From Spirochaetota bacterium (GTDB lineage Bacteria > Spirochaetota > UBA4802 > UB4802): a stretch of 37,767 nt of DNA. Both the position numbers and the translations under genes were made by a program. Under the pieces are notes generated by a model, which made no database searches, was not told the DNA's origin, and saw nothing but the letters and a program-made list of their open reading frames with translations. The stretch is from assembly GCA_040756435.1 (NCBI GenBank), contig JBFLZD010000015.1:24947-62713 (forward strand), given 5' to 3'. Every line of letters starts with the position of its first letter. The first letter of the stretch is position 1. Shown piece by piece: positions 281 through 37,767 of the stretch.

Positions 281-631
281 CTACAATTTTATGCGCTTCG
301 TTTTACTACAACATTGCGCAATCTTAACCTGATGTGCCGCATTAAATTCAATAACTCTATCTACACACCCAATAAAATCTAAAACGCAGGGAGTTTTCAG
401 ATGATAATATACTGTTGTGCCCTGCTTTATATCATACACCAGCCCTGCATTTTTCATCACCGATAAATGTTTGGATACCGTTGACAAGTCTGCACCTACA
501 AGCTGTTGCAGCTCACACACGCATCGGGGTCCTTTTTCAAGCTCCTCCACCATCACAAGTCTACTTGGATGCGCCAGTGCCTTCATGATTGTAGCACGTG
601 TTTCATACTTTTGTCTTAACAGTGGGTCCAT
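281..631 (-). CDS. ArsR/SmtB-family metal-responsive repressor
   Basis: This is a winged-helix repressor of about 116 residues, a normal ArsR/SmtB length. The core reads as a classic ArsR HTH: LAHPSRL, then CVCEL (C37, C39), then DLSTVSKHLSVMKNAGLV as the DNA-reading helix, then the QGTTVYYHL wing. C37-x-C39 sits at the alpha-3 position used for arsenite or soft-metal sensing in the family, and a CC pair lies near the C-terminus. A longer frame reaches 685, but ATG at 631 has an AGGA ribosome site about 9 bases upstream and begins where family members begin. The longer frame would also run through the upstream palindrome. The gene follows an RND efflux operon and shares a 22-bp palindrome with it, so autoregulation plus control of the pump is the natural inference. 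The inducer is unknown. Confidence 0.9.
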   Translation of the reverse strand: MDPLLRQKYETRATIMKALAHPSRLVMVEELEKGPRCVCELQQLVGADLSTVSKHLSVMKNAGLVYDIKQGTTVYYHLKTPCVLDFIGCVDRVIEFNAAHQVKIAQCCSKTKRIKL

Positions 632-666
632 AGCAATATTCCTGTAAATTGATATATAAATTATCT

Positions 667-688
667 TATTTGGCAATATAGCCAAATA
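667..688. promoter_or_regulatory. Putative ArsR-type operator, copy 1
   Basis: The sequence is the palindrome TATTTGGC-N6-GCCAAATA. It lies 36 bp upstream of the regulator start and next to AT-rich TATATT/TATTAT, a possible -10 on the minus strand. The identical 22 bp recur at 7006-7027 in front of the TolC-like gene. That coincidence and the adjacent ArsR-family gene make an autoregulatory operator likely. Confidence 0.8.
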
Positions 689-19279: not shown

Positions 19280-19282
19280 CAA

Positions 19283-19986: not shown

Positions 19987-20010
19987 TACAGTGTTGCTTT
20001 AAAACGAAAT

Positions 20011-20057: not shown

Positions 20058-20086
20058 TAACATATTTGTTATGGAGGATTATTAAA

Positions 20087-20833
20087 ATGATAATACCATT
20101 ACTGGCGGGCATAATAACATTTTTATTTACCACTGTACTAACTATAGCCGGAGTTGGTGCAGCTTTTATTTTAATTCCTGTATTTATTGGACTCAAGATA
20201 GATATTCATGTAGCCATGGCAACCGCACTACTTCTTAATGCCATAGCCATGACCTTTGCATCATACCGATTTTATAAAGATAAGCTGATACTGTGGCAGG
20301 TTGCATTACCAATCCTTATAATAGCAACAGCACTATCACCATTGGGTGCATGGACCAGCAGATTTTTAGATCGCAATGTACTTTTATGGCTTTTTACTGC
20401 ATTTCTTGTATTTGCGGGAAGTATGATGCTATTTTACCAGCCAAAAGCTTCACAAAAAGAGCACTCACGTACAACACAAATCATATCGGGTCTTTTAGTT
20501 GGAAGTGCTGCAGGCTTTCTGGGAGGATTGCTTGGAGTTGGTGGGGGAAATTTTATTGTCCCTGTACTGGTGTGGTTAGGATATGACCCAAAAAAATCTT
20601 CAGCAACTACATCGTTCATAGTTATTTTCTCATCCCTTTCAGGTTTTATGGGACATGCAACATTAGGTGCAATTAATGTACCACTTCTGGCATTTACTGC
20701 CTCAGGATCAGCAACGGGGGCACTTCTGGGTGCATGGCTTATGAGTAAAAAGCTGCAGCAAAAGCAGGTTAAAGCTATCATTGGCGTTGTACTATTTGCC
20801 ATTGCCATAAAAATGGCATGGGGACTTTTGTAA
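20087..20833 (+). CDS. TSUP (TauE/SafE)-family membrane permease
   Basis: The protein has about 248 residues with seven to eight membrane helices. The two-fold repeated TSUP core is seen: GVGAAFILIPVFIGLKIDIHVAMATALLLNA in the first half, and GGLLGVGGGNFIVPVLVWLGYDPKKSSATTSF in the second, the latter with the diagnostic G-rich GVGGG and the Pro-containing helix. Members export or import sulfite, sulfoacetate and related small anions. ATG at 20087 with GGAGG about 10 bases upstream is chosen over the in-frame TTG at 20066. It follows the FmdE-family gene by 100 bp. The substrate cannot be deduced; sulfur anions are the family default. Confidence 0.88.
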   Translation: MIIPLLAGIITFLFTTVLTIAGVGAAFILIPVFIGLKIDIHVAMATALLLNAIAMTFASYRFYKDKLILWQVALPILIIATALSPLGAWTSRFLDRNVLLWLFTAFLVFAGSMMLFYQPKASQKEHSRTTQIISGLLVGSAAGFLGGLLGVGGGNFIVPVLVWLGYDPKKSSATTSFIVIFSSLSGFMGHATLGAINVPLLAFTASGSATGALLGAWLMSKKLQQKQVKAIIGVVLFAIAIKMAWGLL

Positions 20834-20836
20834 ACT

Positions 20837-23764
20837 TCACCAGCGCAATTTTGTAATGATCGTATCAAGCATAATTTTCAACTGCAAAGTTAGGGGCAAA
20901 TCCATGTCTTCCTTGATTTCCTGGGCGGCAAATGCATACACCGCCGAAAGTTTAGATTGCTTTCCCTGCGCGCTCACAGCCTGCACTGCAACATAATATG
21001 TATTGCCCTGCTTAAATGACCTATTCTTTGCATATTCTTTTACAAACAGTGATGTGTCTTTTGTTTTATACATTGCAGTCAATGAATCTTTTGTATCACC
21101 GCAATGAATAATGTAGGAAGCAGCCCCATCTGCTTTTTCAAAATTTACATACACACCACCATCTTTATATAATGCAAACACGCCTTTTGGCGGCTGTAAT
21201 GGTGGTGTAGTTTTTTTCTCCTGATTTTCATGCAAGAGCATTACAAACGGTTGATTTGCGTAGGAAATCATCAGTTGTTGTAATTTTTGTGGCAATGGAT
21301 AATGACTATGAACTATCGCCAATGCAAAATGTTGAGTGGTTCCACTGTAAGTGCATGCACCTGATTGATACTGATCCCCATTTAAGATTGCAGCTTTAAA
21401 CCCCCTGCCCTTGCCCCAGGTGGGCTGATAGTACTGTAGGCCAAAAAATGTTCCAAACGGATTGAGACTTACTGCAAAACCTGTAAAAAAATTATGCGTC
21501 ACCTGTAATGGACAAAAAGCAAAATTAGAAAGCGTAGCGTTATCCTTTGCTACAGCAATACATTCCTTACCATTGGTTATGGCCACATACTCCGCAGTGA
21601 TGTGATTGTTGACATTAGCAAGATCTAAATTTTTACGTGAATGTTTAAAGTAATCTATTGTGTACTGCGATTCCACACCCAAGTAATTACGCTTTAATAC
21701 AGTAAAAGGCTGTTTCTTTGTAGCACGCATGGCTGGATACAGCGGGCAAGGTGCAACCTGCTGCCAGGCTGGATCATAGATGCGCGCAAGCTGTGGCATA
21801 CCCGGCTTAAAAATTTTTGTACGTGGTGTATCAGGATAGGTAATGGTGCCATCAACAAAGATTATATCAATACCAGCAACAAGCGCAATGACATACTCAA
21901 ACTGCCCGGGGGTAATGTTTTGCGGAAGTGCAACAGTTCCTGAAATCTTAACTGCTGCAACACCATCATCTCCGTTGCGCAGCACTGTTACATCAATTTT
22001 TTCGGGGCGATAGTTTTTGTTATTGTACTGTATCCAGGGAAGTAAGCTGTACTCATCAAGAACATCTTTGCCATGTGCTTCTACTGAATTAACCCCCTGC
22101 TTAAATGTAATAGCAATTGTACTGTTTTTCAGAAGCTGTTTTGTGGCATTTGTTGTGTACTGAGTTTGACGGTGAGGCTTGCGAACAATATGATACACGC
22201 CATCAGAAAGAATCCCTTCCTTTACAAAAATTCGGCTTATTCCATTATGTGAAAAAACAAACACCGGTAATAGTGTACTATTATATTTCAGGAAATAATC
22301 GTAACCTTCATGCAAATCACCAGCAATTGTTAACACAAAATTATCAGCATTTTGTGTAAGAACCAGCAGAGAATTGACATATTCGTAGTTATTAAAATTT
22401 TGCACTTTTTTATCCTGGCTGCAAATCTTTTGTGCATATGCTTTACTATCACGTACAACAGGATTGGTTGTTGATTGCATTTGTTGAATGAGTTCATCAA
22501 CAATGTGTTCACGGTTTTTTGCCAGAAACGGTGTTGCCATGCCAAAGTTTGTTGTTGAAAGAAGCCGCATACGTTTTTGAAACGATTCACCCAATGCAAC
22601 TTTAATGTTTTCAGGAATAGGTTGCTTGATGTATTTATACAACGCTTTTACCAATGCATGCGTCATTCTGTCTTTTTCAACTGCAGTCCAGTAATCGCTG
22701 CAATATTTTTTCTCAGCCCAGGATACATAGCCATTAAAACTGCCATCAGCAGTATCCTGGCCAAATGAAATTTCTTTTACCGGCTTATGATGTTGCACAT
22801 AATCATGTAACGTAGTAAACTCAACATAATCAAGGGATGCAATGTCATCAATGAGCTGTGAAAGCCCACCTGTATTGGGCACCCATTTTAAATATGAAGG
22901 TAGTTTATACCCATACCAGTATGAATCATCAGCATCACTGTTGATACATATCAACACATCATTCTTTATATTACCACGCAATTGCTCATGGCGTAGCATC
23001 TGAACCCAGTTATAAATGCTTACATTTTCAATGAGGTCAGCATGATTATACGCAGGTATTACAAGCATTCTTTCATTGGTTATCGTATTATTGTATATAA
23101 GCGGATTGTGAGCCTCTTCAAGCGATAATTCATCAACAAAAACTCTAAATGCATCAAACGGTATAGCACTGTAATATAGAACAACTCCCTGTATGCCAAG
23201 CTCCTTATATAGATTAAAATTTCCTGCAGATGTCATCATCTCCTGCGGACGAACATACGGCGAATACACACCAAAAATATCTTTCACTCCACTTTTCTTT
23301 ACATTGGTAATAGCGTTTTGCAATGAATATACAAATTCATCGCGAGTCATTGCAGAAACAAGTCCATTATTATACGACATCAGGATGATTTCATCACCAT
23401 GTTCCTTCACACGGTGTTTGATGTTCTGTATGATATCGGGAGCATATCTTGGTAATATCTCTTCTAAGGTAAAAAGGTTTTCAAAATCCCACACACCTTT
23501 AACAGGGATGCCTTTTTTATTCTTTTCATCCAGCACTTCAATAATCTTACGTACAATACGTATATCTTTGCCAAAACCTGCTTCATCGTTGGTATCAATT
23601 CTGTATGAATGATAAAAATTGGCATGAAACCCCAGTAAAACATATACTTTGTGTTTTGACTCTTTACCAATAACAGACAGTTTTGGCAATATTATTGAGC
23701 CAACCAGATATACGATATACACAACGACAAGTAAAGCTAACGCATATTTAAAAATATTTTTCAT
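20837..23764 (-). CDS. Large exported GH57/deacetylase-like protein with a fibronectin-type C-terminus
   Basis: The protein has about 975 residues, with an N-terminal membrane anchor (FKYALALLVVVYIVYLVGSI). Residues about 35-420 look like the seven-stranded barrel shared by GH57, GH38 and polysaccharide deacetylases: VYVLLGFHANFYHSYRIDTNDE has the metal- or substrate-binding His, and ICINSDADDSYW is a plausible acidic catalytic segment. A large beta-rich middle follows (about 500-860), resembling the carbohydrate-handling half of such hydrolases. A fibronectin III-like domain ends the protein (about 870-960). ATG at 23764 with GGGAGA is chosen over an in-frame GTG at 23779. It converges on the TSUP gene with 3 bp between stops. 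Two exact decamers lie in it (21311, 22016). Family assignment is moderate. Confidence 0.65.
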   Translation of the reverse strand: MKNIFKYALALLVVVYIVYLVGSIILPKLSVIGKESKHKVYVLLGFHANFYHSYRIDTNDEAGFGKDIRIVRKIIEVLDEKNKKGIPVKGVWDFENLFTLEEILPRYAPDIIQNIKHRVKEHGDEIILMSYNNGLVSAMTRDEFVYSLQNAITNVKKSGVKDIFGVYSPYVRPQEMMTSAGNFNLYKELGIQGVVLYYSAIPFDAFRVFVDELSLEEAHNPLIYNNTITNERMLVIPAYNHADLIENVSIYNWVQMLRHEQLRGNIKNDVLICINSDADDSYWYGYKLPSYLKWVPNTGGLSQLIDDIASLDYVEFTTLHDYVQHHKPVKEISFGQDTADGSFNGYVSWAEKKYCSDYWTAVEKDRMTHALVKALYKYIKQPIPENIKVALGESFQKRMRLLSTTNFGMATPFLAKNREHIVDELIQQMQSTTNPVVRDSKAYAQKICSQDKKVQNFNNYEYVNSLLVLTQNADNFVLTIAGDLHEGYDYFLKYNSTLLPVFVFSHNGISRIFVKEGILSDGVYHIVRKPHRQTQYTTNATKQLLKNSTIAITFKQGVNSVEAHGKDVLDEYSLLPWIQYNNKNYRPEKIDVTVLRNGDDGVAAVKISGTVALPQNITPGQFEYVIALVAGIDIIFVDGTITYPDTPRTKIFKPGMPQLARIYDPAWQQVAPCPLYPAMRATKKQPFTVLKRNYLGVESQYTIDYFKHSRKNLDLANVNNHITAEYVAITNGKECIAVAKDNATLSNFAFCPLQVTHNFFTGFAVSLNPFGTFFGLQYYQPTWGKGRGFKAAILNGDQYQSGACTYSGTTQHFALAIVHSHYPLPQKLQQLMISYANQPFVMLLHENQEKKTTPPLQPPKGVFALYKDGGVYVNFEKADGAASYIIHCGDTKDSLTAMYKTKDTSLFVKEYAKNRSFKQGNTYYVAVQAVSAQGKQSKLSAVYAFAAQEIKEDMDLPLTLQLKIMLDTIITKLRW

Positions 23765-24051
23765 AATAATTTCTCCCACAAAATACTTCTAACAAAATTT
23801 TAGTAAAACTTCTCAATTAAAAAGAGTATTACAATTATCATTTAAACCTGGATGTTACAGGTATTAATAGTAAAACTTAATCGTAAACTTTTTAAGCATT
23901 TTTTCCTGACTGTGATTATAAACAGCACTCCAAACTATACCCATAGAACATATCACATTAATTATATCAGATAGTAACCATAAAACATACTGGTACCATA
24001 CCAGATACAGTTATAAAAGGCAAGAAATTATAAAGTAAGGATTTGTTGGAA

Positions 24052-25747: not shown

Positions 25748-26908
25748 TTAAAATTTAACTTCTGTTTTTACAAAGATCTTGGTGTCAGGATCATCCAATG
25801 CTTCAGACTTAACATTCTGGTAATACACCACAGCCCTCAGGCCATTAGCCACATGATACCCTAACCCTGCTGCCCATGCTGTCACCTTTGATTTGTCAAG
25901 ATCATTGTTTTCGCCAAACGAATATCGACCAACTACTATAATCGGCATGCTTATGATAGTGTCTAACCTGATATTGAGCCAGCTATCAAACAATTTGTAC
26001 TTATTTTCAACAGCAGCTTGCCCCAAAGCTTTAGTGCCCACCTCAGGAAGCAGGTACATAGCACCTAGTTTAAAAAGCTCATCGGAGTAAACCACACCAC
26101 CACCCATGTACCTGTTGTAGTTGTCACTAATCGTGTCGTTGGTATCCTGGTTACGATAGATGCCAAAAATGTACAGGTCTTTAACTGGCATAATCGTTGC
26201 CATGCCATAGTATGCCTTGCCGTCATCACCAAGCTTTACCTCATCGGCATATTTATACCCTTCACCATTGGTATATGCGCCAGTGAACGTTACAAGTTTA
26301 TTGAACAGGGAAACTTCTAAACTAACTCCCATATCTGCAGAATTGTCAATTGACTGTCCCTTTATACTAGTGCCGCTAAGATAATAGAGAACGGTTTTTG
26401 CCTGGTCTGCATAGTTTTGCTCTAGAAAGCGGTAATCACTCTGCTTGTCAACAAAACCAATAAGTGGTGTGCTAATCATGCCAAACTGAAACTTAACGTC
26501 AGCAATGTCAAACTTTTGCTTTGCTTCCACATAGGCATATTTCAAGTATACGGTGTATCCATTGGTTTTTGATTCTACCTTTGATGATGTGGCACCACCA
26601 TCTTCAGTATACTTTGTTTCACTTTTAGCATCAACCTGGCCAACATCAGTGGTTACCCGCACACTCCATATATCATCCAGCTTCTTTTTGAAATCTAAAT
26701 ATACTCGTTTAATTGAAAAGGTATTGTTGTTTTCGGTCTGAGTTGTACTTGAATGTTTCAATTCCTTTGACCATTCTAAATATGCCAGCCCACCAACTTC
26801 CAGTTTTGGTTTTTCCGGTACCTTTTCCTCAGGCTTTGCTTCCTGCGCAAAACCAGCAGTTGCAATTGCTATCACCGCCAAAAACGCCATACATTTTACA
26901 AACTTCAT
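25748..26908 (-). CDS. Outer-membrane porin-like beta-barrel protein
   Basis: The protein has 386 residues and a signal peptide ending in GFAQ. A short, charged, Pro-rich linker (EAKPEEKVPEKPKLEV) leads into alternating strands such as GGLAYLEWSKEL, TFSIKRVYLDFKKKL and WSVRVTTDVGQ, resembling phosphate-selective porin O/P-type barrels. The last residue is Phe (KTEVKF), the usual signal for BAM-dependent insertion. A perfect AGGAGG precedes the start. It is monocistronic, with its own terminator. The residues give no clue to the solute. Its position beside the molybdoenzyme block could mean anion uptake, but that is speculation. Confidence 0.85.
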   Translation of the reverse strand: MKFVKCMAFLAVIAIATAGFAQEAKPEEKVPEKPKLEVGGLAYLEWSKELKHSSTTQTENNNTFSIKRVYLDFKKKLDDIWSVRVTTDVGQVDAKSETKYTEDGGATSSKVESKTNGYTVYLKYAYVEAKQKFDIADVKFQFGMISTPLIGFVDKQSDYRFLEQNYADQAKTVLYYLSGTSIKGQSIDNSADMGVSLEVSLFNKLVTFTGAYTNGEGYKYADEVKLGDDGKAYYGMATIMPVKDLYIFGIYRNQDTNDTISDNYNRYMGGGVVYSDELFKLGAMYLLPEVGTKALGQAAVENKYKLFDSWLNIRLDTIISMPIIVVGRYSFGENNDLDKSKVTAWAAGLGYHVANGLRAVVYYQNVKSEALDDPDTKIFVKTEVKF

Positions 26909-27285: not shown

Positions 27286-27996
27286 TTATGTAACAGATAA
27301 TTCTTTATTTAAATTATTTGTTCTACCAACTTTCTTCTCATCTTGTCCAGTCTCTATCCTCACCACAATTTTCTTATGCTCCTCACAACCATCAAGCGAG
27401 CGTATCATCCCTGATATGGCATTAATCAACATGGTTTGCAAAAATGGCTTCATAGAAATTGGTTTGCCATCAACCTCAAGCATGATCAGTTCTCGATTTC
27501 TATTCGCAAGATATTGCTTTTCAATGAAATCAACAATCTCCCTTGCATCATTTATATTAAACTGAGGTACGTTAACATCAAGTTGTGTATCCGTGGCCAC
27601 AGCTATCAGGTTGTCATCATCGGTGCAAAGAAGATCATTGTATGCTTCTTTTCTGAACACCTCAATTTTTGGTTTCTTTGAGCGCTTGTATCCTTCAGTC
27701 AGTACTATATCCACATCTTCAAAATATTTTGTTACAAGTTCGTCTATCTCGGCATCATGGTCTGTGTCCTTCATCACAGCAACACTAAAAGGAGATGATA
27801 TGACAGTGATAGCTGCACCAGCTTTCTTGTGGCGCCAGCTATCCTTCCCTTCATGATCTATGGTAAATCCATGCACATCGTGCTTAATAGTACCAACCCT
27901 CCAGCCCCGTTTTACAAGCTCATTAACTAACTTTTCTAATAGCGTAGTCTTCCCTGTTCCTGATCTACCAACAATAGAAATCACTATATTAGTCAT
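27286..27996 (-). CDS. mobB: MobB-like GTPase for molybdenum cofactor finishing, with an extra C-terminal domain
   Basis: The protein has 236 residues. The first 165 or so are MobB: a P loop (GRSGTGKTTLLEKL), IKHDVHGFTIDHEGKDSWRHKKAGA with the conserved DxxGxDSxR-type segment, and VDIVLTEGYKRSKKPKIEV. MobB binds GTP and helps MobA attach GMP to molybdopterin to form bis-MGD. A further 65 residues (LEVDGKPISMKPFLQTMLINAISGMIRSLDGCEEH) form an extra domain seen in some bacterial MobB proteins. GAGGTGA lies 5 bases before the start. It is the last gene of the molybdoenzyme operon, supplying the enzyme's cofactor. Confidence 0.92.
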   Translation of the reverse strand: MTNIVISIVGRSGTGKTTLLEKLVNELVKRGWRVGTIKHDVHGFTIDHEGKDSWRHKKAGAAITVISSPFSVAVMKDTDHDAEIDELVTKYFEDVDIVLTEGYKRSKKPKIEVFRKEAYNDLLCTDDDNLIAVATDTQLDVNVPQFNINDAREIVDFIEKQYLANRNRELIMLEVDGKPISMKPFLQTMLINAISGMIRSLDGCEEHKKIVVRIETGQDEKKVGRTNNLNKELSVT

Positions 27997-28065
27997 AGTA
28001 TCACCTCTAATGTAATTTTATCGTATTCCTGCCTCTTGCAAAAGATGCGTTGCATACATAAAACA

Positions 28066-28692
28066 TCAATCTTCACCATCATTTGCCTGTTTTTGAAATT
28101 TAACTTCCTCACAGATGAACTCATACGCAAAACGGCCAAGATTTTTATAAAACTTTGTTTTTGCCTTTTCCAAAGTCAGCTTGTAAAAATATTCCATCCT
28201 TGGGTAAAGGTGTACTGTTAAAAGATCATTAAAAATGGTGGTGTAGTAGCTAACGTCTTTCCTGGCATTGCTATTCCCTTTAACAAGGAATATTTTGTGC
28301 AAGAGAAACTCTGCAAATTGTAGTAGAAATGCAATGTGATGGGGCTCAAAGTTTCCTATTATTTCAAACCCAGCTTTTTTGCATAGACCAATAATCTTCT
28401 CTGTCATAACTCCATGATTATCGTAAAATACATCTTCCATTAGCGATTCTACTCCATTTTGCTCACTAACAGATGCGCTCTCATCTAAAAGGATTGTATA
28501 ATCTGTGAGTAGCAGATCAGTTTCTTCCACATTATCAGGAAGATATTTAACAAACTCAGGATATAGTTCACAAACAGCATCGCTCAATTCTAAAATCCTC
28601 TCGTAAATAGTAGCATAGGGTCTATAGAAACATTGAGTTAAATGCCTGTAGATTTCACTTCTAAACTGATCTCTTTTTCTTGCTTTCATCAT
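28066..28692 (-). CDS. TorD/DmsD-family molybdoenzyme chaperone
   Basis: The protein has 208 residues, all helical and without a signal peptide. The pattern fits TorD-type chaperones, which bind the Tat signal of a molybdoenzyme precursor and guard cofactor insertion. Typical elements are an N-terminal helix RSEIYRHLTQCFYRPYATIYERI, a middle segment LLTDYTILLDESASVSE (in place of the usual EYxRLF), and EPHHIAFLLQFAEFLLHKIF matching the D/E-P-x-H-I-A-x-E-L-x-F region. It begins 35 bp after the catalytic-subunit gene, the usual placement. Two adjacent ATGs (28692 and 28689) are possible starts. Confidence 0.85.
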   Translation of the reverse strand: MMKARKRDQFRSEIYRHLTQCFYRPYATIYERILELSDAVCELYPEFVKYLPDNVEETDLLLTDYTILLDESASVSEQNGVESLMEDVFYDNHGVMTEKIIGLCKKAGFEIIGNFEPHHIAFLLQFAEFLLHKIFLVKGNSNARKDVSYYTTIFNDLLTVHLYPRMEYFYKLTLEKAKTKFYKNLGRFAYEFICEEVKFQKQANDGED

Positions 28693-28726
28693 CCCTTGCT
28701 AATTAGTATGTAATTGCCAATCCACT

Positions 28727-31700
28727 TTATACTTTGATAAGGCGTACCTTTGTATCATAAAAGGACACACTACCACCCACCGGATCTAATAAACACGTAT
28801 TGTTTCGAAGAGAAGGATCGGTCCACATAGCTGCATTCGCATGTATGCCAGTACCCCTTTGTGGATCTCCATCTATAGTTTCCCCATCAATTACCATGTC
28901 GGTTGCTCCTGTAGCCCAGTGCCCAAAACCAAGAACAAAACTGATAACGCCAGGCCGTATATCTTCGGTAATAATCACCCTGCCTATCATTGATTTTTTG
29001 CTTCCATTTTTTAAATCCCATTCACCTGACGGGTTTGTTGAACTTACTACTTTAACACGATCATCTGCACCAAGACCAAGTCTTTCTGCATCTATTTTGT
29101 TTATAATAATGCCATTTTCTGGCATAATAGGTTTAAGCCAATAGTTAGTGGTGGTACGCGACTTCGTCTGTGTCACTGTTCTGTTGGTAATCAAATGCAA
29201 GTCATATCCTTTACTCATATCATCAAGCGTATCACCTTTGTAATTGCGTTGGGGCAAATATACAGCAATTCCTGGCATTGAACGTCCGGTGCCAGAATAT
29301 TTATTGCTGGCTGTTTTCTCCTGATACATATTCAACAGTTTTCCATAGGCGTTTTTTACATGGTTACCTTCATAGACGTGAGAATATTCTTCAAAACGCC
29401 CTCCGCGGTTTAATATATATACAACCTTTTTCCAATAAGGTCCACATATTGCTTTCCACTTTTCTGCGTCAAAAACAGTTTTAGGAAGGTGGCGCCTGGC
29501 CTGCATAAACAGTGCAAGCTCTCTTTCGTTGGCATCAGGAACATCTTTACCAGGCCCATCACCCACAGCAATGTTTGCTACCGCACGGAGATAAAAATCT
29601 TCCGGGCGTTTGATATGTAAACCATCTCCTAATGCATCAGGACCAAACGCCTTAAGACCCAGTGATTCGGAAAAAGCCATAAGCATAGCTTCAAGGCTTA
29701 TAGGCATATTCTCACCATACACACGTACCGTTTCAGGGATAGGTGCAATAGATGGCTGTCGTACCGGTTGCACTTTGTTAGGCATGTTTGGATGCGACCC
29801 TTGAAATTCCCAGCGCTCAAGATACGATAGATCAGGGAAAATATAGTCGGCATACATCGAAGAAGTACCTATAGTAATATCATTGGCAATAAATAGTGGA
29901 AGTTTGTTTACATCAGCAAGAACTTCAATATTGGTATGTCCTGCTGGCAGTGCATATGCAGGTGTTCCCATATAGAGGATGAGTGCCTTCACAGGGTAGG
30001 GATACGCATCACCTATGCTTGGGATAATCTCTTCATAGACGTCGCTTGAAAGCGGATACCAATTGCGCTTAGCTGGATAGCCCTCAAAGAGCGATGTTTT
30101 CTCATAGGCAATACCGTGACGTATGGAACTTACACCAAACGCTTCAATCTTTCCTTTTACTTTGGTAAGATCAAAAGGACCACCCTTCTTTCCATCATAT
30201 CCGTAAGTACTGGCTGCAATCATACCACCTTTCCAGTCAAAGTTCCCTAATAACATATTGACCGACATCCAGGCCAGCACATTATAAAAGCCATTGGTAT
30301 GCTGTGCCGGCCCTCTGTGGATATCCACTGAAGCTTGCTTGCCATACGTTGTGAGCTCCCTGCATACATCTTCAACATCCTGTGGCTGTACACCTGCTAT
30401 CTTGCACCATTTTTGGAAAGTATTCTGACTTGCCGATTCTTTAAGTAGCTGTAGGGATGATTTGACCATAATCATTTTCCCGTCATGAAAAATCTGACGA
30501 TCAACAAAGAGGTCACCATAAACTTGAATATTCTCACTGTTAGGATCAAAAAATACAGGATTGCCATTAACCAAAGCGCAAAGTGTATTCCCGTTTCCCC
30601 TGATGAACTTGCCCGGCTTACCATCTTTTACCTCAACAAGCCATGTGGCGTTTGACCATGATTTTTCGCCTATTGCTTTTGCTGCTCCCTTCGTGGCACA
30701 CTGTAAAAAACGCTGATCATATTTGCCATTATCAATAATCCAGCGTATAATTGCTAATGCCAGTGCAGCATCCTCACCAGGTTTTACTGGCAGCCATTTG
30801 TGCGCTTTTGAGGCAAGCTTAGAAAAGCGTGGATCTGCCACAGCTATCTTCGTTTTACCACTGGCTAAGTTTGCCGTAAGTCGGACAGTTCTATTCGTTG
30901 GCCCATAATTTGCTTCAAAAAGGTTTGCTCCTACAAAAAGTACATAGCGGGCATGTTCCAGATCGGTTTGCCAGTAGAATTTCTGACCATCTTTAAATTT
31001 CCCATCAATATACTGTTCGCTAATTGCCTTGCAGGTAAAATACAGTGAACCCTGACACACTGTCGTATGGCCATGAAGGTTTGTGGTACCAAAAGCAGCA
31101 CCAAAACGTTTGATAAAATCACTACGACCACCTTTGAGTCTGCCCCATGCTATTACCAGTTGATTGTTCTTAGGCCCTAGATCGGGATGATCAGGATCTA
31201 TGAGGGTATTAATAAATTCTGCATATTTCCTTTTAAAGGTTTCAAGCAATTGATTTTTTTGCTGAGGATTCTTTTCATCCCAATATTTCTGAATATCTTC
31301 TGCCATATTTTTGGCCACTTTCCCATCTTTTAAGGCCATAATTGATCTGAGCCCTTCTACATTCCTATTTTCCTCTCCCCTTACGTGTGCAAAGAGCTTT
31401 CCCCCTTCAACAATTTCTTTTACTGCCACATCAAAAGGTATGCTTTTCCACCTGTTAGATCCTCTTGGACCATCACGTTTTAAAACCTTTACTATCCTGT
31501 AGGGATCATAGGCAGTCTGTACACCGGCTTGACCTTTTGGACAAAGTCCCGCATCTATTTGAGCAGCCTCCTCCACAGAGGTATTCATAGAAATATTTGG
31601 TACCATATTGAAAGGATTGTAGGGATTACCATCGATTTTTACAGCAACATTGTTTTGTATTTTCGCTTTAATTCCACATCCGGTATTACAATTAAGACAC

Positions 31701-31888
31701 ACCGAATAAATGATATTCTCAGGATTGTTCAGTATCGAAGGTTCATCGGGTCTTGAACTTTCAATAATTGCATTGGGGTTATTCTTACAACCCATAATAC
31801 CCATAAGTGTTGCTATTCCGGCGCTTCCCAGAAGAGCTCCCGTAGTTTCTTTTACAAAGGTTCTGCGAGATAATTTCCTATTTTTCAT
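28727..31888 (-). CDS. Tat-exported bis-MGD molybdoenzyme catalytic subunit (tetrathionate/arsenate/polysulfide reductase type)
   Basis: The protein has about 1053 residues. The N-terminus is a twin-arginine signal (LSRRTFVKETTGALLGSAG), followed by MGIMGC, which could also be a lipobox. A [4Fe-4S] site is formed by CLNCNTGC and a later LCPKGQAG. The molybdenum ligand is probably the Cys in HGHTTVCQGSLYF. PTNRTVRLTAN and VADPRFSKLASKA bind the pyranopterins, and the dinucleotide-binding C-terminal domain begins near LHLITNRTVTQTKSRTTTNYW. Size, Tat export and an NrfD-type partner resemble TtrA, ArrA, SrdA and PsrA/PhsA enzymes, which reduce inorganic S, As or Se compounds; the substrate is not decidable here. 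The ATG at 31888 is favoured over 31897 because of AGGAGG spacing. Confidence 0.92.
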   Translation of the reverse strand: MKNRKLSRRTFVKETTGALLGSAGIATLMGIMGCKNNPNAIIESSRPDEPSILNNPENIIYSVCLNCNTGCGIKAKIQNNVAVKIDGNPYNPFNMVPNISMNTSVEEAAQIDAGLCPKGQAGVQTAYDPYRIVKVLKRDGPRGSNRWKSIPFDVAVKEIVEGGKLFAHVRGEENRNVEGLRSIMALKDGKVAKNMAEDIQKYWDEKNPQQKNQLLETFKRKYAEFINTLIDPDHPDLGPKNNQLVIAWGRLKGGRSDFIKRFGAAFGTTNLHGHTTVCQGSLYFTCKAISEQYIDGKFKDGQKFYWQTDLEHARYVLFVGANLFEANYGPTNRTVRLTANLASGKTKIAVADPRFSKLASKAHKWLPVKPGEDAALALAIIRWIIDNGKYDQRFLQCATKGAAKAIGEKSWSNATWLVEVKDGKPGKFIRGNGNTLCALVNGNPVFFDPNSENIQVYGDLFVDRQIFHDGKMIMVKSSLQLLKESASQNTFQKWCKIAGVQPQDVEDVCRELTTYGKQASVDIHRGPAQHTNGFYNVLAWMSVNMLLGNFDWKGGMIAASTYGYDGKKGGPFDLTKVKGKIEAFGVSSIRHGIAYEKTSLFEGYPAKRNWYPLSSDVYEEIIPSIGDAYPYPVKALILYMGTPAYALPAGHTNIEVLADVNKLPLFIANDITIGTSSMYADYIFPDLSYLERWEFQGSHPNMPNKVQPVRQPSIAPIPETVRVYGENMPISLEAMLMAFSESLGLKAFGPDALGDGLHIKRPEDFYLRAVANIAVGDGPGKDVPDANERELALFMQARRHLPKTVFDAEKWKAICGPYWKKVVYILNRGGRFEEYSHVYEGNHVKNAYGKLLNMYQEKTASNKYSGTGRSMPGIAVYLPQRNYKGDTLDDMSKGYDLHLITNRTVTQTKSRTTTNYWLKPIMPENGIIINKIDAERLGLGADDRVKVVSSTNPSGEWDLKNGSKKSMIGRVIITEDIRPGVISFVLGFGHWATGATDMVIDGETIDGDPQRGTGIHANAAMWTDPSLRNNTCLLDPVGGSVSFYDTKVRLIKV

Positions 31889-31903
31889 TACTATCATCTC
31901 CTC

Positions 31904-33094
31904 CTAATTTTCCTTTTCAATATATGTTGATAAAATTTTATGGCTAAAATAGAAAAGGGCAAGGCCAAATGCTATCACAAAGAGGGTGATGAGATATTCA
32001 ACCATTGTTGGCGAGTAGTTAAAATTAAGACGGGCATGGGTGAACGCTTCATTAAGGCCTTTCAGTTCAGGGATTGATTGCCCGGGTATAAGTATATTCA
32101 AGCGCGTTGAGATAAACGTAGTAACAATGATAAATGCCCCTATCGCAAGCTTTGTAACAGATTGGGCATTGAATATGAGATAGAAACCGATTATAGCTCC
32201 ACCTACATGGATTAGCCAAAACACCCACCAGAATTTTCCAAATAGGATAAGATAGATAGTTTCTTTCAGGTGTGATATTGGTGACCACAGTGCAAGGCTG
32301 TACTCGCTAAATTCCCCCATAAAATAGACAGCAATTCCTGCAAGAATGATTTTTCTAAGATACGGATAAGGCCCCTGCTCTGGAGTATCTATCGCAGCAG
32401 ATTCCCCTCTAAGGTAGTAATAAACCAGAAGCAGAGCAGATGCCCCGGAAGTGATTGCTGATGTGAGAAAAAGCACCGGAAGTATTGCAGAACTCCAGAA
32501 TGGCTTGGCATCAACAACACCAAAAAAAGCACCACTCTGGCTGGGATATGCAATAGAGAGCAGTAATCCAAGCAATAACAAGGGGACAAGCCATCCAGTC
32601 TTATCATTAACTACATTAGCCTGCCGTCTTTTCACACTCAAAAAAAGCATGATACCCACAAGTACAAGAAAGATGCTATACATCCAGGCATTGAACGCAA
32701 GCATAGATCCAAAATTAGGAGAAATCCCAACACGGTACGCACGAAACGGACGTCCCAGATCAAGCCATATTGCCAGAAGGCCAGTTATAAGGCTACAAGC
32801 AGAGACCAAAAGTGTAGTATTGAGATTTTCTCTTAATCCTTTAATTCCTTTCAGATACCCAATTACACCAACTGCAAAAGCTCCACCCGAAATACCCACA
32901 GCGTGAAAATATACCGCTATCCAAATTCCCCAGGGAACATAGCTCCCATATCCCGCAAGCCGTTCACCTGAAATTACTTTTATTAAAAGTCCTATTACTC
33001 CAGGAACAAATAGGCATAACCATAAGATCTTTAATTTTTTAAGCATAGTCTCGTTATTGAACACTTGTATCCATGATAAAAGTTTTGCTATCAT
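31904..33094 (-). CDS. NrfD/PsrC-like quinol-oxidising membrane subunit
   Basis: The protein has about 396 residues with eight to nine hydrophobic helices. The segment YGSYVPWGIWIAVYFHAVGISGGAF is the signature of the NrfD/PsrC family, whose periplasmic-side quinol site feeds electrons to an Fe-S subunit. LDLGRPFRAYR is another family motif. ATG at 33094 is preceded by GAGGTGG, which overlaps the stop codon of the Fe-S subunit gene; a GTG at 33106 overlapping that stop (GTGA) is the alternative start. The catalytic subunit gene follows by 15 bp. Together the three form a quinol-coupled reductase complex facing the periplasm. Confidence 0.93.
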   Translation of the reverse strand: MIAKLLSWIQVFNNETMLKKLKILWLCLFVPGVIGLLIKVISGERLAGYGSYVPWGIWIAVYFHAVGISGGAFAVGVIGYLKGIKGLRENLNTTLLVSACSLITGLLAIWLDLGRPFRAYRVGISPNFGSMLAFNAWMYSIFLVLVGIMLFLSVKRRQANVVNDKTGWLVPLLLLGLLLSIAYPSQSGAFFGVVDAKPFWSSAILPVLFLTSAITSGASALLLVYYYLRGESAAIDTPEQGPYPYLRKIILAGIAVYFMGEFSEYSLALWSPISHLKETIYLILFGKFWWVFWLIHVGGAIIGFYLIFNAQSVTKLAIGAFIIVTTFISTRLNILIPGQSIPELKGLNEAFTHARLNFNYSPTMVEYLITLFVIAFGLALFYFSHKILSTYIEKEN

Positions 33095-33102
33095 ATACCA
33101 CC

Positions 33103-34059
33103 TCACACTAAATAGATGACTTCGGGCTTTGTGCCTTTCTCTTCAAGTAGCTTCATCTGATTGCTCGATTTTGCCATTTCAGCCACAAGGCTTCTGGCGT
33201 CATTTGCATCACCAAAATAATTTGCACGGCCTATACAGGTGCTCACACACTGCGGCAAAAGCCCCTGCTCAATCCTGTGTAAGCAGAAGTGACATTTACG
33301 GGCATTCCCTACAGGTGAACCATGACCTTCACGGCTCCATGATTTGTTGTATTCATTTGACGGTTGTTTCTCGTATGGTTGAATCTCCGGGGTATGTTCA
33401 GTATAATAATTTCCAAAATCGCTGGTACGGGCACCATAGGGACATGCAGTAAGACAATACCGACAGCCAATACATCTATCGTAATCTATAATGACCACGC
33501 CATCTGGTCGTTTCCACGTAGCGCGGACAGGACAGACCGATACGCATGAGGGATTATTGCACTGCATGCAGGGTCTTGGGAAAAAGCGCGTTATCTGGTG
33601 AGGGTATTGACCAATATGTTCAGTTATCACTGGCCTATACACAACCCCCGGTGGAAGTTTGTTCTCAGCAATACATGCAACTGTACACGCATGACAACCC
33701 ACGCATTTTCTTGTATCTATCACCATTAACCATCGACGCTCTTCCATTGGTTTAAAAAGTGCACGGCGAAGCTCATTTTGCATCCTGACAAGGATATCAA
33801 CTTCTCCAGCACCATCCTGAACCGGGGGTATTTTGTGTGTTGTTATAGGGCCTTTTGGCACAGCTGGATTTGGTATAATTCTTGATATTACAGTGGACAT
33901 CACTCCAAGACCAATCGCAGATCCTATAAGGGTAATTGCACGTTTTCTGTCTATTGGAGTTAAAGAATAAGCTTCATCTGAAGACTCGTTATCATCCACC
34001 GCTGATCGCAATACCTCATCAGTTTGCTTTGGCGATTTAGTGGATTGTTTTTTTGCCAT
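33103..34059 (-). CDS. Four-cluster ferredoxin-like electron-transfer subunit
   Basis: The protein has 318 residues with four Cys groups, for four [4Fe-4S] clusters: [35 protein letters not shown]; and CHFC...CVSTC. This matches DmsB/PsrB/TtrB-type subunits linking the NrfD-like quinol site to the molybdoenzyme. The N-terminus has a charged stretch and then [23 protein letters not shown], an anchor or RK-variant Tat signal, so the clusters face the periplasm. GGAGGAATGAT precedes the start. It is the first gene of the reductase operon (Fe-S, NrfD, catalytic, chaperone, MobB). Confidence 0.93.
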
Positions 34060-34229
34060 ATCATTCCTCCTTCAATTTCCATTAGCTCATATAGTTAATG
34101 TGCAAACATAATATTATATGATACTGTAATGTGCTGCACTTGTGGTTTTATGAATTACCGTAAATGTCTTTTAAAAAAATTTAATAGTTTTACTCATTAC
34201 ACAGCATTTTTTACATACGTATATACTAG

Positions 34230-35357
34230 CTAATACATATCAGTCACACGCACCAGTTGATCCCACAATTTTTTTATCACTACCAAACCGTAATGCAAAG
34301 TCAATCCCGCAAGAAAACCAATTGTCAGATTGTTGAGCACAAAACCAAAAATTCCAACTATAAGCGCATTAAAAAAAGCTTTATTATCATCTATAATATC
34401 TTTGATATATGATGCATGCTGAATTCCCACGCAAAAAAGAATAATCCCTAAAATACCCACAGGGAATGCAGATATAAATGCAAAGGAGCTATTTCCTAAA
34501 AACAGAGCAATGGAAATGAATGTTATACCTATTATATACCCTGACATACTATCTTTTGCTCCAAAATTATAATGAGCAGTCAATCCACCAGAACCATGAC
34601 ACATTGGTGCGCCACCAAAAAAACCTGAGAGTATATTTGCCAATCCAATGCTCAGAGGAATGCTTATAAGATTTAAACGTGTTGCTTTATCTCCATATAG
34701 CAATATTCCAGTATTCCTGGTGGCAACAATGGAATTGCCAAATGTCAGGGCAATTTGCGGAATGACCAATATTGTAAACCCGGTCACAAAATTATCAATG
34801 TTTGGCAAGGAGGGAGTAAAATCAATATGACCTGTAAATGATAGTGATATTTTACTCAAAGAAATGGCAACGCCAAGAATCATTATGGGAATGAGAGGTG
34901 GAATACTTTTGTATTGAGTAAAAACCACAAAAAGAAAAAAACCCACAACACATGCAATAGCAATATCATTAAATATGAAATTAAAAGAAGTCTTTACCAG
35001 CATGGCCCCCAATCCCAGTTGAATACCCCGTATAACTGACAGTGGAAAAATATTCCCGAGTTTTTCACTAATCCCCGTTGCTGCTATTGCTATCAGAATT
35101 ATGCCCATCAGGATACCCGCAGCATTAATCACTTCAAATCCAAGACCCATCGAGATGGCTATAACACACATCGCTTTAAGCGGCTGCACTGGCATTGTAA
35201 TCCTGAAATAGAATGCTGAAACCACATAAAATATACCTGCAGCAAGGAACATAGCTGTGGGGTTTATCCCATTCTTAGAGATGAGGAGAATAGCTAATGG
35301 AAAAAAAATTCCAATGTCTCCAAAAGCTCCAGATATATCCCAGAGTAACTTCCTCAC
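34230..35357 (-). CDS. MOT1-type molybdate/sulfate transporter
   Basis: The protein has 375 residues with about ten to eleven membrane helices. The opening WDISGAFGDIGIFFPLAILLI and the repeat-like PMCHGSGGLTAHYNFGAKDS are the two signature regions of MOT1 proteins (SulP-related molybdate transporters). MPVQPLKAM is a third. Next to a molybdoenzyme and mobB, molybdate is the likely substrate; sulfate cannot be excluded. The start is GTG at 35357 with AGGGG upstream. An ATG immediately before it is followed at once by TGA (ATGTGA overlapping the GTG). It lies 170 bp upstream of the Fe-S subunit gene on the same strand, so it could be read with the operon. Confidence 0.88.
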   Translation of the reverse strand: MRKLLWDISGAFGDIGIFFPLAILLISKNGINPTAMFLAAGIFYVVSAFYFRITMPVQPLKAMCVIAISMGLGFEVINAAGILMGIILIAIAATGISEKLGNIFPLSVIRGIQLGLGAMLVKTSFNFIFNDIAIACVVGFFLFVVFTQYKSIPPLIPIMILGVAISLSKISLSFTGHIDFTPSLPNIDNFVTGFTILVIPQIALTFGNSIVATRNTGILLYGDKATRLNLISIPLSIGLANILSGFFGGAPMCHGSGGLTAHYNFGAKDSMSGYIIGITFISIALFLGNSSFAFISAFPVGILGIILFCVGIQHASYIKDIIDDNKAFFNALIVGIFGFVLNNLTIGFLAGLTLHYGLVVIKKLWDQLVRVTDMY

Positions 35358-35541
35358 ATTAGCCCCTGATACTTTGTTTCATAGTAAATCTTTAATTAAA
35401 ATAGTCTCTCGTAAAACAATAGAGCCAAAACATTTCTATAACATTTGCATACTGTGAAAATAAAATCAATCGCATGAAATACAAATGCCTTGTGGTAGTA
35501 ACAATTTTTTTGTTGTGGTATAAAAGACTACAAGAGGGTAG

Positions 35542-36192
35542 TTATATGAGTTTCGTATCTATAGCACGAATTGCATATTTTTGTAGCTCAAAGTTGTTTT
35601 TCAGGTTTAATTTATTTTTAATGCGTTCCCGATAGGTGTTTATGGTATTTATGCTCAAATTGAGTGCTTGAGAAATTTCTCGTACACTTTTGCCACTGCC
35701 GATTAAGCGTAATACCTCAATTTCTCTATTAGTGAGAATAGATAGCAAGTTTTCGCTGTTATTTGCTATACCACTAATAGCCTTATTTATTATTTTTTCA
35801 GACATCTGTTCACTTAAGTAGATCCCTCCATTCAGAATTTTCCGAATGGCGGTGATTACATTCTCGTATGTCTGCTGTTTCATGACATACCCCCGAGCGC
35901 CCAAACGCAACGCGCGCTCAGCATAAATTGACTCATCATACATCGATACAATAAGTACAGGAATATTCATACCAAATGCCACTATATCCTTTGTAAGTTC
36001 AAGTCCACTGGGACCATCAAGTCCTATATCCACAATAACTAAATCAGGCTTAAGCTTTCGTATAAGCTGTAGTGCTTTCTGTGCATTTTCTGCCTCTCCA
36101 CATACCTCAAGGCCTATCTCTCTACCAATAAGCTGGGAAAGGCCATATCTGAAAACGGGATGATCATCAACGATGAAAATCTTTTTGTTCAT
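35542..36192 (-). CDS. NarL/FixJ-type response regulator
   Basis: The protein has 216 residues. The receiver domain (about 1-120) has the acidic pair DDHP, the phospho-acceptor Asp in VIVDIGLDGPSG, and the conserved Lys in YVMKQQ. The C-terminal LuxR-type HTH (about 145-210) reads LTNREIEVLRLIGSGKSVREISQALNLSINTINTYRERIKNKL. It lies 6 bp downstream of the sensor kinase gene and is surely its partner. Position upstream of the transporter and reductase genes suggests that it controls them, in the manner of NarL. Confidence 0.92.
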   Translation of the reverse strand: MNKKIFIVDDHPVFRYGLSQLIGREIGLEVCGEAENAQKALQLIRKLKPDLVIVDIGLDGPSGLELTKDIVAFGMNIPVLIVSMYDESIYAERALRLGARGYVMKQQTYENVITAIRKILNGGIYLSEQMSEKIINKAISGIANNSENLLSILTNREIEVLRLIGSGKSVREISQALNLSINTINTYRERIKNKLNLKNNFELQKYAIRAIDTKLI

Positions 36193-36198
36193 AATCTT

Positions 36199-37767
36199 CT
36201 ATCCTTCCATTTTATTTTCATTATTACCACCTTTAACCCCTACAATGCAAGCAATTGATGTTCCTTCATTACCACTGTTAATAATAAGCTGGGCACCAAT
36301 CATATCTGCCCTGTATCTCATAATGCGCATGCCAAGACCATCCTGAGACCCTATTCCATTGCCAAAACCTTTACCGTTATCCATAACCTCCAACTTTAAA
36401 AGCCCGTCGTTCATTTTCATAGATATATTAATCTTTGTTGCTTTACTGTGCTTTCTTGCATTCGTAACAGCCTCCCGGATTATATAGAATAGATGTCGTG
36501 CGGTAATATCATCAAAATGGAAAGCTTCACTGCATATATCAAGTGAGCATTCAATGCCATATATACCTGCTGATTCTTCAACCATCTGGCGTACCGCCGG
36601 AATAAAATTTCCCGCACCAAGATCAACAGGACACAACCCACGGGCCAATCGTCGCGATTTTGAAATTGTGTTTTCAAGAAAGTGTGAGATCTCTTTCAGA
36701 CGAATAGAATCCTCATTGTTCTCATCCAAGTCAGAATATTTATTTTTCATAGAATGCACAGCCATTTTCAATAACACATCTATACCTATAAGGTTTTGCA
36801 TAAGGTCATCATGCAGGTCCTGTCCAATTCGTTGCCGTTCAGATTCATACACATGGATCACATCCCTTTCCAGTTCTCTACGTTTGGTAACATCTCGCCC
36901 TACTTCTACGATTCCTACCAGTTTGCCATCATCCCCATAAAGAGGGCTCGCTGACACTTCATAAATATACTTAAAGTCACCTGTGGTATAAATCCGCTCA
37001 AAAAAAACTGTTTTCCCTATACTTCGTACAACAGACTCTATATCGCCATTGCCGCATTCATCGCATGGATATGTACACCCATCAAGCACATTCATGCATG
37101 AAGCATTACTATTGGCAAGAAGCTGTTTTCTTTTGCGAGCCGAAACATTCAACATCACTACCTGGTTTTCAATGTTCCTAACTATTACTTCATCATCTAC
37201 ACTATCGATAATGGTTTGCAGGAAGCGATAGGAGTCAAGAAGGGCTATATCCGCCTCATTCCTTTTAACCGTTTCCTTCCAGAGCAAACCAACACGATCA
37301 TCAGTGCGATTTTTCTCTCCAGATGATACATTGTTATTGTTTGCCATCACGGCAAGGGCAGCCTCTATTCTTTTTCTGATTGTAATGTCCTTGGCAACAC
37401 CAACAAAACCTTTTATGTCCTTATCTATTCCATCCGAGATTGGTGACATTGAGAAAACTGCAGGTATCTCCTTGTTTTCTTTGCTTATAAAGCGCACTTC
37501 TGCTTCAATTGGTTCACCTTTTGATAATGTTCCATCAATCATTCCATCCCTATCCTTTTGTACCAGCAGTGTTCCCACATGTTTACCAATAAGATGTGAT
37601 TTCACACGTCCAGTCAACGATTCCATTGCCCTATTTACCATGACAATTACACCCTGTCGATCAGTGACCACCAGTGGATCAGTAATATTGGTAATAATCC
37701 TTTCAAGATATCGTCTTGACTTACTCTCGCTCTTAAGTGCCGATATCAGCCGCGCTTGTTTTTCTTG
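36199..37767 (-). CDS. PAS-containing NarX/DegS-type histidine kinase, 5' end beyond the window
   Basis: The reading frame stays open to the end of the window, and the residues before the first in-frame GTG (37671) fit a PAS domain (ERIITNITDPLVVTDRQGVI), so the gene is cut by the window edge. Visible parts: PAS 1; a linker; PAS 2 (about residues 165-270 counted from 37671); HisKA_3 with acceptor His in ERQRIGQDLHDDLMQNL; and an HATPase with REAVTNARKHSKA, DNGKGFG and GLGMRIM. PAS 2 carries a Cys-rich loop, CMNVLDGCTYPCDECGNGD, which could bind a metal or Fe-S cluster. No membrane helix is visible in the present part. It forms a pair with the NarL-type regulator 6 bp downstream. Confidence 0.92.
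   Translation of the reverse strand, partial: QEKQARLISALKSESKSRRYLERIITNITDPLVVTDRQGVIVMVNRAMESLTGRVKSHLIGKHVGTLLVQKDRDGMIDGTLSKGEPIEAEVRFISKENKEIPAVFSMSPISDGIDKDIKGFVGVAKDITIRKRIEAALAVMANNNNVSSGEKNRTDDRVGLLWKETVKRNEADIALLDSYRFLQTIIDSVDDEVIVRNIENQVVMLNVSARKRKQLLANSNASCMNVLDGCTYPCDECGNGDIESVVRSIGKTVFFERIYTTGDFKYIYEVSASPLYGDDGKLVGIVEVGRDVTKRRELERDVIHVYESERQRIGQDLHDDLMQNLIGIDVLLKMAVHSMKNKYSDLDENNEDSIRLKEISHFLENTISKSRRLARGLCPVDLGAGNFIPAVRQMVEESAGIYGIECSLDICSEAFHFDDITARHLFYIIREAVTNARKHSKATKINISMKMNDGLLKLEVMDNGKGFGNGIGSQDGLGMRIMRYRADMIGAQLIINSGNEGTSIACIVGVKGGNNENKMEG

What the first reader, a model, noticed from the sequence alone, without database searches (positions are those of the whole stretch)
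27286..37767. Self-contained molybdoenzyme respiration module of undefined substrate
On one strand lie a NarX/NarL-like pair, a MOT1-type transporter, Fe-S, NrfD and catalytic subunits, a TorD-like chaperone and MobB. Having sensor, metal uptake, cofactor finishing and enzyme together makes a portable respiratory island. The catalytic subunit resembles the TtrA/ArrA/SrdA/PsrA groups without clear membership in one by eye, so a new terminal acceptor is possible.
Basis: partly seen in the sequence, partly recalled or inferred. Interest (0 to 1): 0.6.

Follow-up and report, generated by a model that had tools for sequence, protein, structure and literature searches.

The report
Arsenic-linked TtrA-like respiratory molybdoenzyme module
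A spirochaete carries a compact gene set for breathing an oxidised chemical with a molybdenum enzyme that belongs to a large, unnamed sister group of tetrathionate reductase, and whose relatives sit beside arsenic genes and are switched on by arsenate, so it is probably an arsenate-type reductase that standard searches miss.

Summary
On the minus strand at 27286-37767 lie a PAS histidine kinase, a NarL-type regulator, MOT1, a TtrB-like Fe-S subunit, NrfD, a 1056-aa Cys-ligand molybdopterin subunit, a weak TorD-like chaperone and MobB. A beta-barrel porin (25748-26908) and a terminator-like hairpin probably complete the unit.

The catalytic subunit belongs to none of the characterised groups tested. 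It scores 480 bits against TtrA (cut-off 1750) and 117 against ArrA (cut-off 1600), and is 34% identical to a real TtrA. It falls in a fully supported clade spanning at least 18 phyla, outside TtrA, ArxA and PsrA/PhsA.

Its nearest studied relative is Melioribacter roseus 'TtrA' (MROS_1076): 69% identical, same B-C-A order, strongly induced by arsenate in published work, and preceded by ArxX-like X-S-R regulators and an ars operon. Across the clade, ACR3/ArsP genes lie within 9 kb of 7 of 21 catalytic genes, against 1 of 44 PhsA-like genes (p=0.001). Arsenate-respiring, arr-less Anaeromyxobacter PSR-1 carries two members. The window's contig has its own ars cluster 29 kb away.

Most likely a quinol-fed arsenate (perhaps antimonate) reductase. 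The substrate is inferred. AnrA and SrdA could not be compared.

The parts
36199..37767 (-). sensor histidine kinase, PAS + PAS_4 + HisKA_3 + HATPase_c, incomplete at its 5' end (contig end)
   Evidence: Pfam; 60% identical to the HK upstream of the 83%-identical enzyme in Spirochaetes bacterium RBG_16_49_21
35542..36192 (-). NarL/LuxR-type response regulator
   Evidence: Response_reg + GerE; 74% and 54% identical to regulators upstream of the enzyme in two other spirochaetes, L013 and L061
34230..35357 (-). MOT1-type molybdate transporter
   Evidence: PF16983 132 bits; a MOT1 gene lies near the enzyme in 7 of 79 loci
33103..34059 (-). TtrB/DsrO-like four-cluster Fe-S electron-transfer subunit (B)
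   Evidence: Fer4_11 and others; TtrB model 171 bits, cut-off 416; 69.6% identical to the M. roseus counterpart
31904..33106 (-). NrfD-like membrane quinol dehydrogenase subunit (C)
   Evidence: PF03916 93 bits; 54.7% identical to the M. roseus counterpart
28727..31897 (-). molybdopterin catalytic subunit (A), 1056 aa; Tat signal SRRTFVK, [4Fe-4S] Cys 67/70/74 and 119, Mo-ligand Cys281 in HGHTTVCQGSLYF
   Evidence: Cys ligand in 77 of 79 members; clade support 100/100
28066..28692 (-). TorD/REMP-like chaperone (weak call)
   Evidence: TIGR03482 19 bits; position directly after A; 34% identical to the gene after A in L013
27286..27996 (-). MobB molybdopterin-guanine-dinucleotide adaptor
   Evidence: PF03205 167 bits, TIGR00176 155 bits over its cut-off of 76; 69% and 62% identical to MobB genes by the enzyme in L013 and L014
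25748..26908 (-). OmpL-like beta-barrel porin, probable last gene of the unit
   Evidence: same family lies within 2.3 kb of the enzyme in 8 of 79 loci and between regulator and enzyme in M. roseus; 41.7% identical to a porin inside the ars cluster on the same contig; the window protein itself has no Pfam hit, the M. roseus one matches PF07642
25694..25723 (-). terminator-like hairpin, 12 pairs with T-rich tail, after the porin
281..685 (-). ArsR/SmtB regulator opening an ars cluster (ArsP, porin, Trx3, Trx, CcdA, truncated ACR3, LMW-type ArsC candidate) that continues left of the window on the same contig
   Evidence: HTH_metalloreg 85 bits over its cut-off of 55; ArsP at G000:C15:23427-24602; gene order and Pfam of L189

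Best explanation
The module encodes a periplasmic, quinol-fed respiratory reductase of the complex iron-sulfur molybdoenzyme type. Menaquinol is oxidised at NrfD, electrons pass through the four-cluster Fe-S subunit to a Mo-bisPGD centre held by Cys281 in the Tat-exported catalytic subunit, and a pentavalent group-15 oxyanion is reduced there; arsenate to arsenite is the likeliest, antimonate is possible. The PAS kinase/NarL pair switches the genes on, MOT1 and MobB supply molybdate and finish the cofactor, the chaperone loads it, and the porin lets the oxyanion through the outer membrane. Shown: gene content, domains, phylogenetic place, orthology to the arsenate-induced M. roseus enzyme, statistical linkage of the family to arsenic genes. 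Inferred: direction of catalysis, the substrate, the electron path and the roles of porin and kinase.
For: 1) Clade place: UFBoot/SH-aLRT 100/100 for the family; window, L013, L014, L016, L036, L066, M. roseus TtrA and one close kin of it form a 100/100 subclade. 2) Orthology: A 69.0%, Fe-S 69.6%, NrfD 54.7% identical to M. roseus, same B-C-A order. Published RT-PCR found this gene nearly silent without arsenate and strongly raised with it, beside 'ArrTSR' and arsRPCB (PMC5492636); M. roseus uses arsenate but is not stimulated by sulfur, thiosulfate or sulfite (PMC3534657). 3) Arsenic linkage: ACR3/ArsP within 9 kb of 7 of 21 family genes against 1 of 44 PhsA-like genes in an overlapping genome set (Fisher p=0.001); 0.21 pairs expected, 9 found. 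Linked members occur in most subclades. 4) PhnD-like X near 19 of 79 family genes, 26-41% (mostly 32-41%) identical to ArxX of arsenite-oxidase operons but about 20-25% to the TtrS sensor domain. 5) Anaeromyxobacter PSR-1 respires arsenate with no arr genes (PMC4432346), gives no ArrA-model hit at E<=1e-40 and holds two members. 6) The window's contig carries ArsR-ArsP-porin-Trx3-Trx-CcdA 29 kb away.
Against: No member has had its activity assayed in the papers read. In M. roseus the Psr/Phs-type gene was induced more clearly, and only that induction passed significance; the authors called TtrA auxiliary (PMC5492636). The window's genome has no PhnD-like X protein, its ACR3 is a 100-residue remnant, ArsB is only a weak superfamily match, and its ars cluster is 29 kb from the enzyme, not adjacent. 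Most family loci (66 of 79) show no ACR3/ArsP in the flank held. Induction and linkage cannot tell arsenate from antimonate, nor reduction from oxidation.
Confidence: 0.6

Rival explanations
1. Dissimilatory antimonate reductase: the family is, or contains, AnrA, and antimonate is the main acceptor.
For: An antimonate reductase AnrA was reported from Geobacter sp. SVR (cited in PMC13284237); Geobacterales carry many family members, one genome two in tandem. ArsR, ACR3 and ArsP systems can also handle antimony (general knowledge).
Against: The AnrA sequence could not be obtained, and its paper is not held. M. roseus induction and PSR-1 growth data are for arsenate (PMC5492636, PMC4432346).
Confidence: 0.15
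2. A sulfur-compound reductase: tetrathionate (as TtrA) or another polythionate or sulfur intermediate.
For: The best curated model is TtrA (480 bits). A TauE/SafE-type exporter gene lies in the window (20066-20833), and a similar-looking one follows the chaperone in L010 (no NCBIfam hit). Several hosts are sulfur-cycling lineages.
Against: Score far below the cut-off of 1750, 34% identity to a real TtrA, outside the TtrA clade with full support, a different Mo loop, no TtrSR; sulfur, thiosulfate and sulfite do not stimulate M. roseus (PMC3534657; tetrathionate untested).
Confidence: 0.1
3. An arsenite oxidase working in the ArxA direction, or a reversible enzyme.
For: X proteins resemble ArxX; the ArxA/ArrA family shows both directions exist within one fold (PMC7331816). 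Many members lack a nearby NrfD and carry a triheme cytochrome c7 instead (19 of 79 loci).
Against: Found mainly in anaerobes; induced in M. roseus growing on arsenate as sole acceptor (PMC5492636); the window's own module has NrfD.
Confidence: 0.07
4. A selenate reductase of the SrdA type, or a promiscuous oxyanion reductase with no single natural substrate.
For: SrdA is placed with TtrA (PMC7331816), and Anaeromyxobacter reduces selenium oxyanions (cited in PMC4432346).
Against: No recurrent selenium genes seen among the neighbours; SrdA sequence not available here.
Confidence: 0.08

Closest known systems
Melioribacter roseus 'TtrBCA' (MROS_1074-1076), arsenate-induced molybdoenzyme (PMC5492636)
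   Same: 69% identical catalytic and Fe-S subunits, same B-C-A order, same subclade, porin of the same family in the cluster, ars genes on the same replicon
   Different: M. roseus has ArxX-like X-S-R regulation and the ars operon directly upstream; the window has a PAS kinase/NarL pair, MOT1 and MobB, and its ars cluster is 29 kb away with a truncated ACR3
Tetrathionate reductase TtrABC (Salmonella/Klebsiella)
   Same: B-C-A gene order, NrfD anchor, Cys-ligand molybdopterin subunit of similar length; best curated model
   Different: 34% identity, below the family cut-off, separate clade, different Mo-ligand loop, no TtrSR
Respiratory arsenate reductase ArrAB / arsenite oxidase ArxAB
   Same: arsenic gene context and X-S-R regulators in many relatives; Fe-S plus molybdopterin subunits
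   Different: longer catalytic subunit (about 1056 against 828-942 aa for the ArxA used), separate clade from ArxA, ArrA model score 117 against 1600
'Seemingly novel lineage' sister to TtrA/SrdA/alternative arsenate reductase (PMC10100899)
   Same: phylogenetic position fits the family described here
   Different: the passages read give no function, context or gene order; identity of the two lineages is not tested
Arsenic-linked TtrA-like enzyme on enterobacterial plasmids (Citrobacter arsenatis, L141)
   Same: B-C-A order beside ars genes
   Different: about 32% identical, groups on the TtrA side of the tree

Membership tests
[quoted passage not shown]
   gaps of -4 and 6 bases between B, C and A
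Tetrathionate reductase TtrA | score above the curated TtrA cut-off (NF011567, 1750 bits) | tested here: not met
   479.6 bits
Tetrathionate reductase TtrA | same clade as a plasmid-annotated TtrA | tested here: not met
   L142, L166 and L144 group apart; family clade 100/100
Respiratory arsenate reductase ArrA | score above the curated ArrA cut-off (NF041714, 1600 bits) | tested here: not met
   117 bits
Anaerobic arsenite oxidase ArxA | same clade as ArxA of Cereibacter and Sulfuricella (identified here from arx-type gene order) | tested here: not met
PsrA/PhsA | clade membership and PhsA cut-off (694 bits) | tested here: not met
   214.6 bits; outgroup
SrdA selenate reductase | clade with B. 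selenatarsenatis SrdA | not testable with these tools
AnrA antimonate reductase (Geobacter sp. SVR) | clade with AnrA | not testable with these tools
   paper and sequence not held
M. roseus-type arsenate-induced 'TtrA-like' group | monophyly with MROS_1076 and B-C-A order | tested here: met
   100/100 subclade, 69% identity, same order
M. roseus-type arsenate-induced 'TtrA-like' group | ArxX/ArrT-like X protein and ars genes directly beside the enzyme | tested here: not met
   no PF12974 protein in the whole genome; ars cluster on the same contig but 29 kb away
Arsenate reductase activity | reduction of arsenate by the enzyme | not testable with these tools
   needs biochemistry

The most novel reading that the evidence does not exclude
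The family is a second, widespread kind of respiratory arsenate reductase, independent of ArrA, present in at least 18 bacterial phyla and overlooked because it is labelled tetrathionate reductase; it would explain arsenate respiration in isolates without arr genes and would mean that arrA surveys miss part of biological arsenic mobilisation.
Probability: 0.45. Interest if true: 0.8.

Novelty: new variant of a known kind. Interest (0 to 1): 0.6.

Why it matters
Arsenate respiration releases arsenic from sediments, and environmental surveys generally track it through arrA. Several isolates respire arsenate without arr genes (PSR-1 in PMC4432346; others listed in PMC9751042). This clade gives one concrete, testable candidate for PSR-1 and M. 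roseus, with gene order, an active-site signature (HGHTTVCQG) and ready-made comparisons.

Tried and rejected
- TtrA, ArrA, ArxA and PsrA/PhsA membership: tested and rejected.
- The MOLY cluster of sulfur disproportionators (PMC12998232): considered because many members have A and B without NrfD. No sequence or defining feature was at hand, and the paper describes MolyAB-TorD without an anchor, unlike the window; left open.
- A periplasmic X sensor for the window: searched genome-wide and absent; also absent upstream of the kinase in L013.
- Functional ACR3 in the window's genome: only the C-terminal 100 residues remain.
- Structure: AlphaFold with 17 sequences gave mean pLDDT 62.7, low at the active site. 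It was not used, and no fold search was run.
- My first automatic label of cluster c6 as ArsR mixed ArsR with LMW-phosphatase-type ArsC; corrected with Pfam.
- Gene calls in GC-rich loci come from a simple overlap-resolving ORF caller; some neighbours (for example NrfD in GC-rich genomes) may be miscalled.
- Literature searches for a name for this clade found none beyond the papers cited.
Full report
OBSERVATION. The catalytic subunit (28727-31897, 1056 aa) has a twin-arginine signal, the N-terminal [4Fe-4S] cysteines and a Cys molybdenum ligand (Cys281, in HGHTTVCQGSLYF). The same Cys motif occurs in 77 of 79 relatives. TorD is a weak call (19 bits). The histidine kinase runs off the window, which is also the end of contig C15 (62713 bases) of the 3.6-Mb, 99.65% complete genome. 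The unit probably continues to a porin at 25748-26908 and a hairpin at 25723-25694.

HOST. The closest relatives of the catalytic subunit are in Spirochaetes bacterium RBG_16_49_21 (83%) and a same-genus genome (80%), so the host is very probably a member of the Spirochaetota (inference). Only 1 of 4 same-genus genomes and 4 of 59 relatives carry the gene, which fits gain and loss.

WHICH ENZYME. NCBIfam scores are TtrA 480 bits (cut-off 1750), PhsA 215 (694) and ArrA 117 (1600). A scan of named genomes returned 78 loci at 52-83% identity in at least 18 named phyla (some record titles are loosely classified). In trees with a plasmid TtrA, ArxA from two arx plasmids, PhsA, Psr-like and ArrA-like proteins, the family is one clade with full support. 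Haloarchaeal enzymes plus a second Carboxydocella enzyme are its neighbours, and TtrA groups elsewhere. A 2023 study noted a 'seemingly novel lineage' sister to TtrA/SrdA (PMC10100899), which may be this one.

KEY RELATIVE. Genome G387 is a single contig of 3,300,414 bases with the gene at 1.248 Mb. Its order (ACR3, small disulfide protein, ArsC-type phosphatase, ArsP, ArsR, then divergent X, S, R, porin, Fe-S, NrfD, A) matches the published Melioribacter roseus locus (3.30 Mb, Mros1063-1076; PMC3534657, PMC5492636). Its A and Fe-S subunits are 69.0% and 69.6% identical to the window's, and it sits in the same 100/100 subclade. Gavrilov et al. found this 'ttrA' nearly silent without arsenate and strongly raised on arsenate. 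Only the second, Psr-type gene passed their significance test, and they proposed TtrA as auxiliary (PMC5492636).

ARSENIC LINKAGE. Neighbours were clustered without prior choice of function. ACR3, ArsP, ArsR, redox-active disulfide protein and X recurred and were confirmed by Pfam/NCBIfam. Distances were then counted in genomes of which most were chosen before this was noticed: ACR3/ArsP lie within 9 kb of 7 of 21 family genes and 1 of 44 PhsA-like genes (p=0.001; 0.21 pairs expected by uniform placement, 9 seen). In the loci held, 8 have ACR3 and 9 have ArsP (13 loci in all), in most subclades. X lies near 19 of 79 family genes and resembles ArxX (26-41%, mostly 32-41%) more than the TtrS sensor (about 20-25%). 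Anaeromyxobacter PSR-1, published as arsenate-respiring with no arr genes (PMC4432346), has two members about 6 kb apart, with ACR3 10-19 kb away on the same contig, and no ArrA-model hit at E<=1e-40.

THE WINDOW'S OWN ARSENIC GENES. The ORF at 281-685 is an ArsR-type regulator. Left of the window on the same contig follow ArsP, a porin 41.7% identical to the module's porin, Trx3, Trx, CcdA, a truncated ACR3 and a low-molecular-weight phosphatase. The cluster is 29 kb from the enzyme. The ACR3 remnant is 99% identical over 100 residues to the intact ACR3 of the sister species; a 100-N scaffold gap ends just before the window. There is no X protein in the genome and only a weak ArsB-superfamily match.

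SUPPLY AND CONTROL. Molybdenum-cofactor genes recur beside the family (MoaA 18, MoeA 16, MOT1 7 of 79 loci). MOT1 is poorly conserved between neighbours (31-33%) and lies on the other side of the enzyme in the sister species, so it seems recruited repeatedly (inference). The NarL-type regulator is shared by three spirochaete loci (74% and 54%). A second architecture, in 19 loci, pairs Fe-S and A with a triheme cytochrome c7, usually without an adjacent NrfD, suggesting that electrons there come from periplasmic cytochromes (inference).

CONCLUSION. I read the module as a quinol-fed periplasmic arsenate reductase (0.6), possibly used on antimonate, of a TtrA-sister family for which I found no assayed activity. 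Lineage, orthology and linkage are shown; substrate and direction are inferred. The most important missing comparison is AnrA, whose sequence could not be reached.

Noticed in passing
L189 (G000:C15:12000-26500), 7294-7638: ACR3 is reduced to its C-terminal 100 residues, 99% identical to the intact ACR3 of a sister species whose other genes are only 65-85% identical; real deletion, recent transfer or assembly fault is unclear.
   Followed up: partly
L013 4081-6582: In RBG_16_49_21 a second, Psr/Phs-like molybdoenzyme (833 aa) with its own Fe-S and NrfD genes lies between the regulator and the family module: two respiratory complexes in tandem.
   Followed up: partly
L141 (Citrobacter arsenatis plasmid) and L167 (E. 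coli plasmid from human faeces): An unnamed TtrA-like operon on enterobacterial plasmids; complete (B-C-A) and beside an ars operon in L141, C and A only beside transposases in L167. It groups on the TtrA side, about 32% identical to the window's enzyme.
   Followed up: partly
G060:C1:716440-719356 (Carboxydocella thermautotrophica): ACR3 directly beside a Psr/Phs-like catalytic subunit, recalling the second arsenate-induced enzyme of M. roseus.
   Followed up: no
G092:C1:1479493-1492917: A Geobacterales genome with two family members about 10 kb apart (68% and 78% identical to the Geomobilimonas query) near multihaem cytochrome genes.
   Followed up: no
L018 959-4138: A deep-branching relative (42% identical) just outside the family, in the same locus as a true member.
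   Followed up: no
window 18620-20833: CRP/FNR-type regulator, FmdE-like protein and TauE/SafE exporter in a row; FmdE away from a formylmethanofuran dehydrogenase is odd.
   Followed up: partly
window 13312-16533: Hybrid 7TMR-DISM sensor kinase with receiver and SpoIIE phosphatase domains in one protein.
   Followed up: no
window 735-6983: RND efflux operon (TolC, adaptor, pump, unknown 232-aa protein) leading directly into the ArsR-ArsP cluster; the pump is 85% conserved in the same place in the sister species.
   Followed up: partly
window 20837-23779: A 980-aa protein with no Pfam or NCBIfam match.
   Followed up: no
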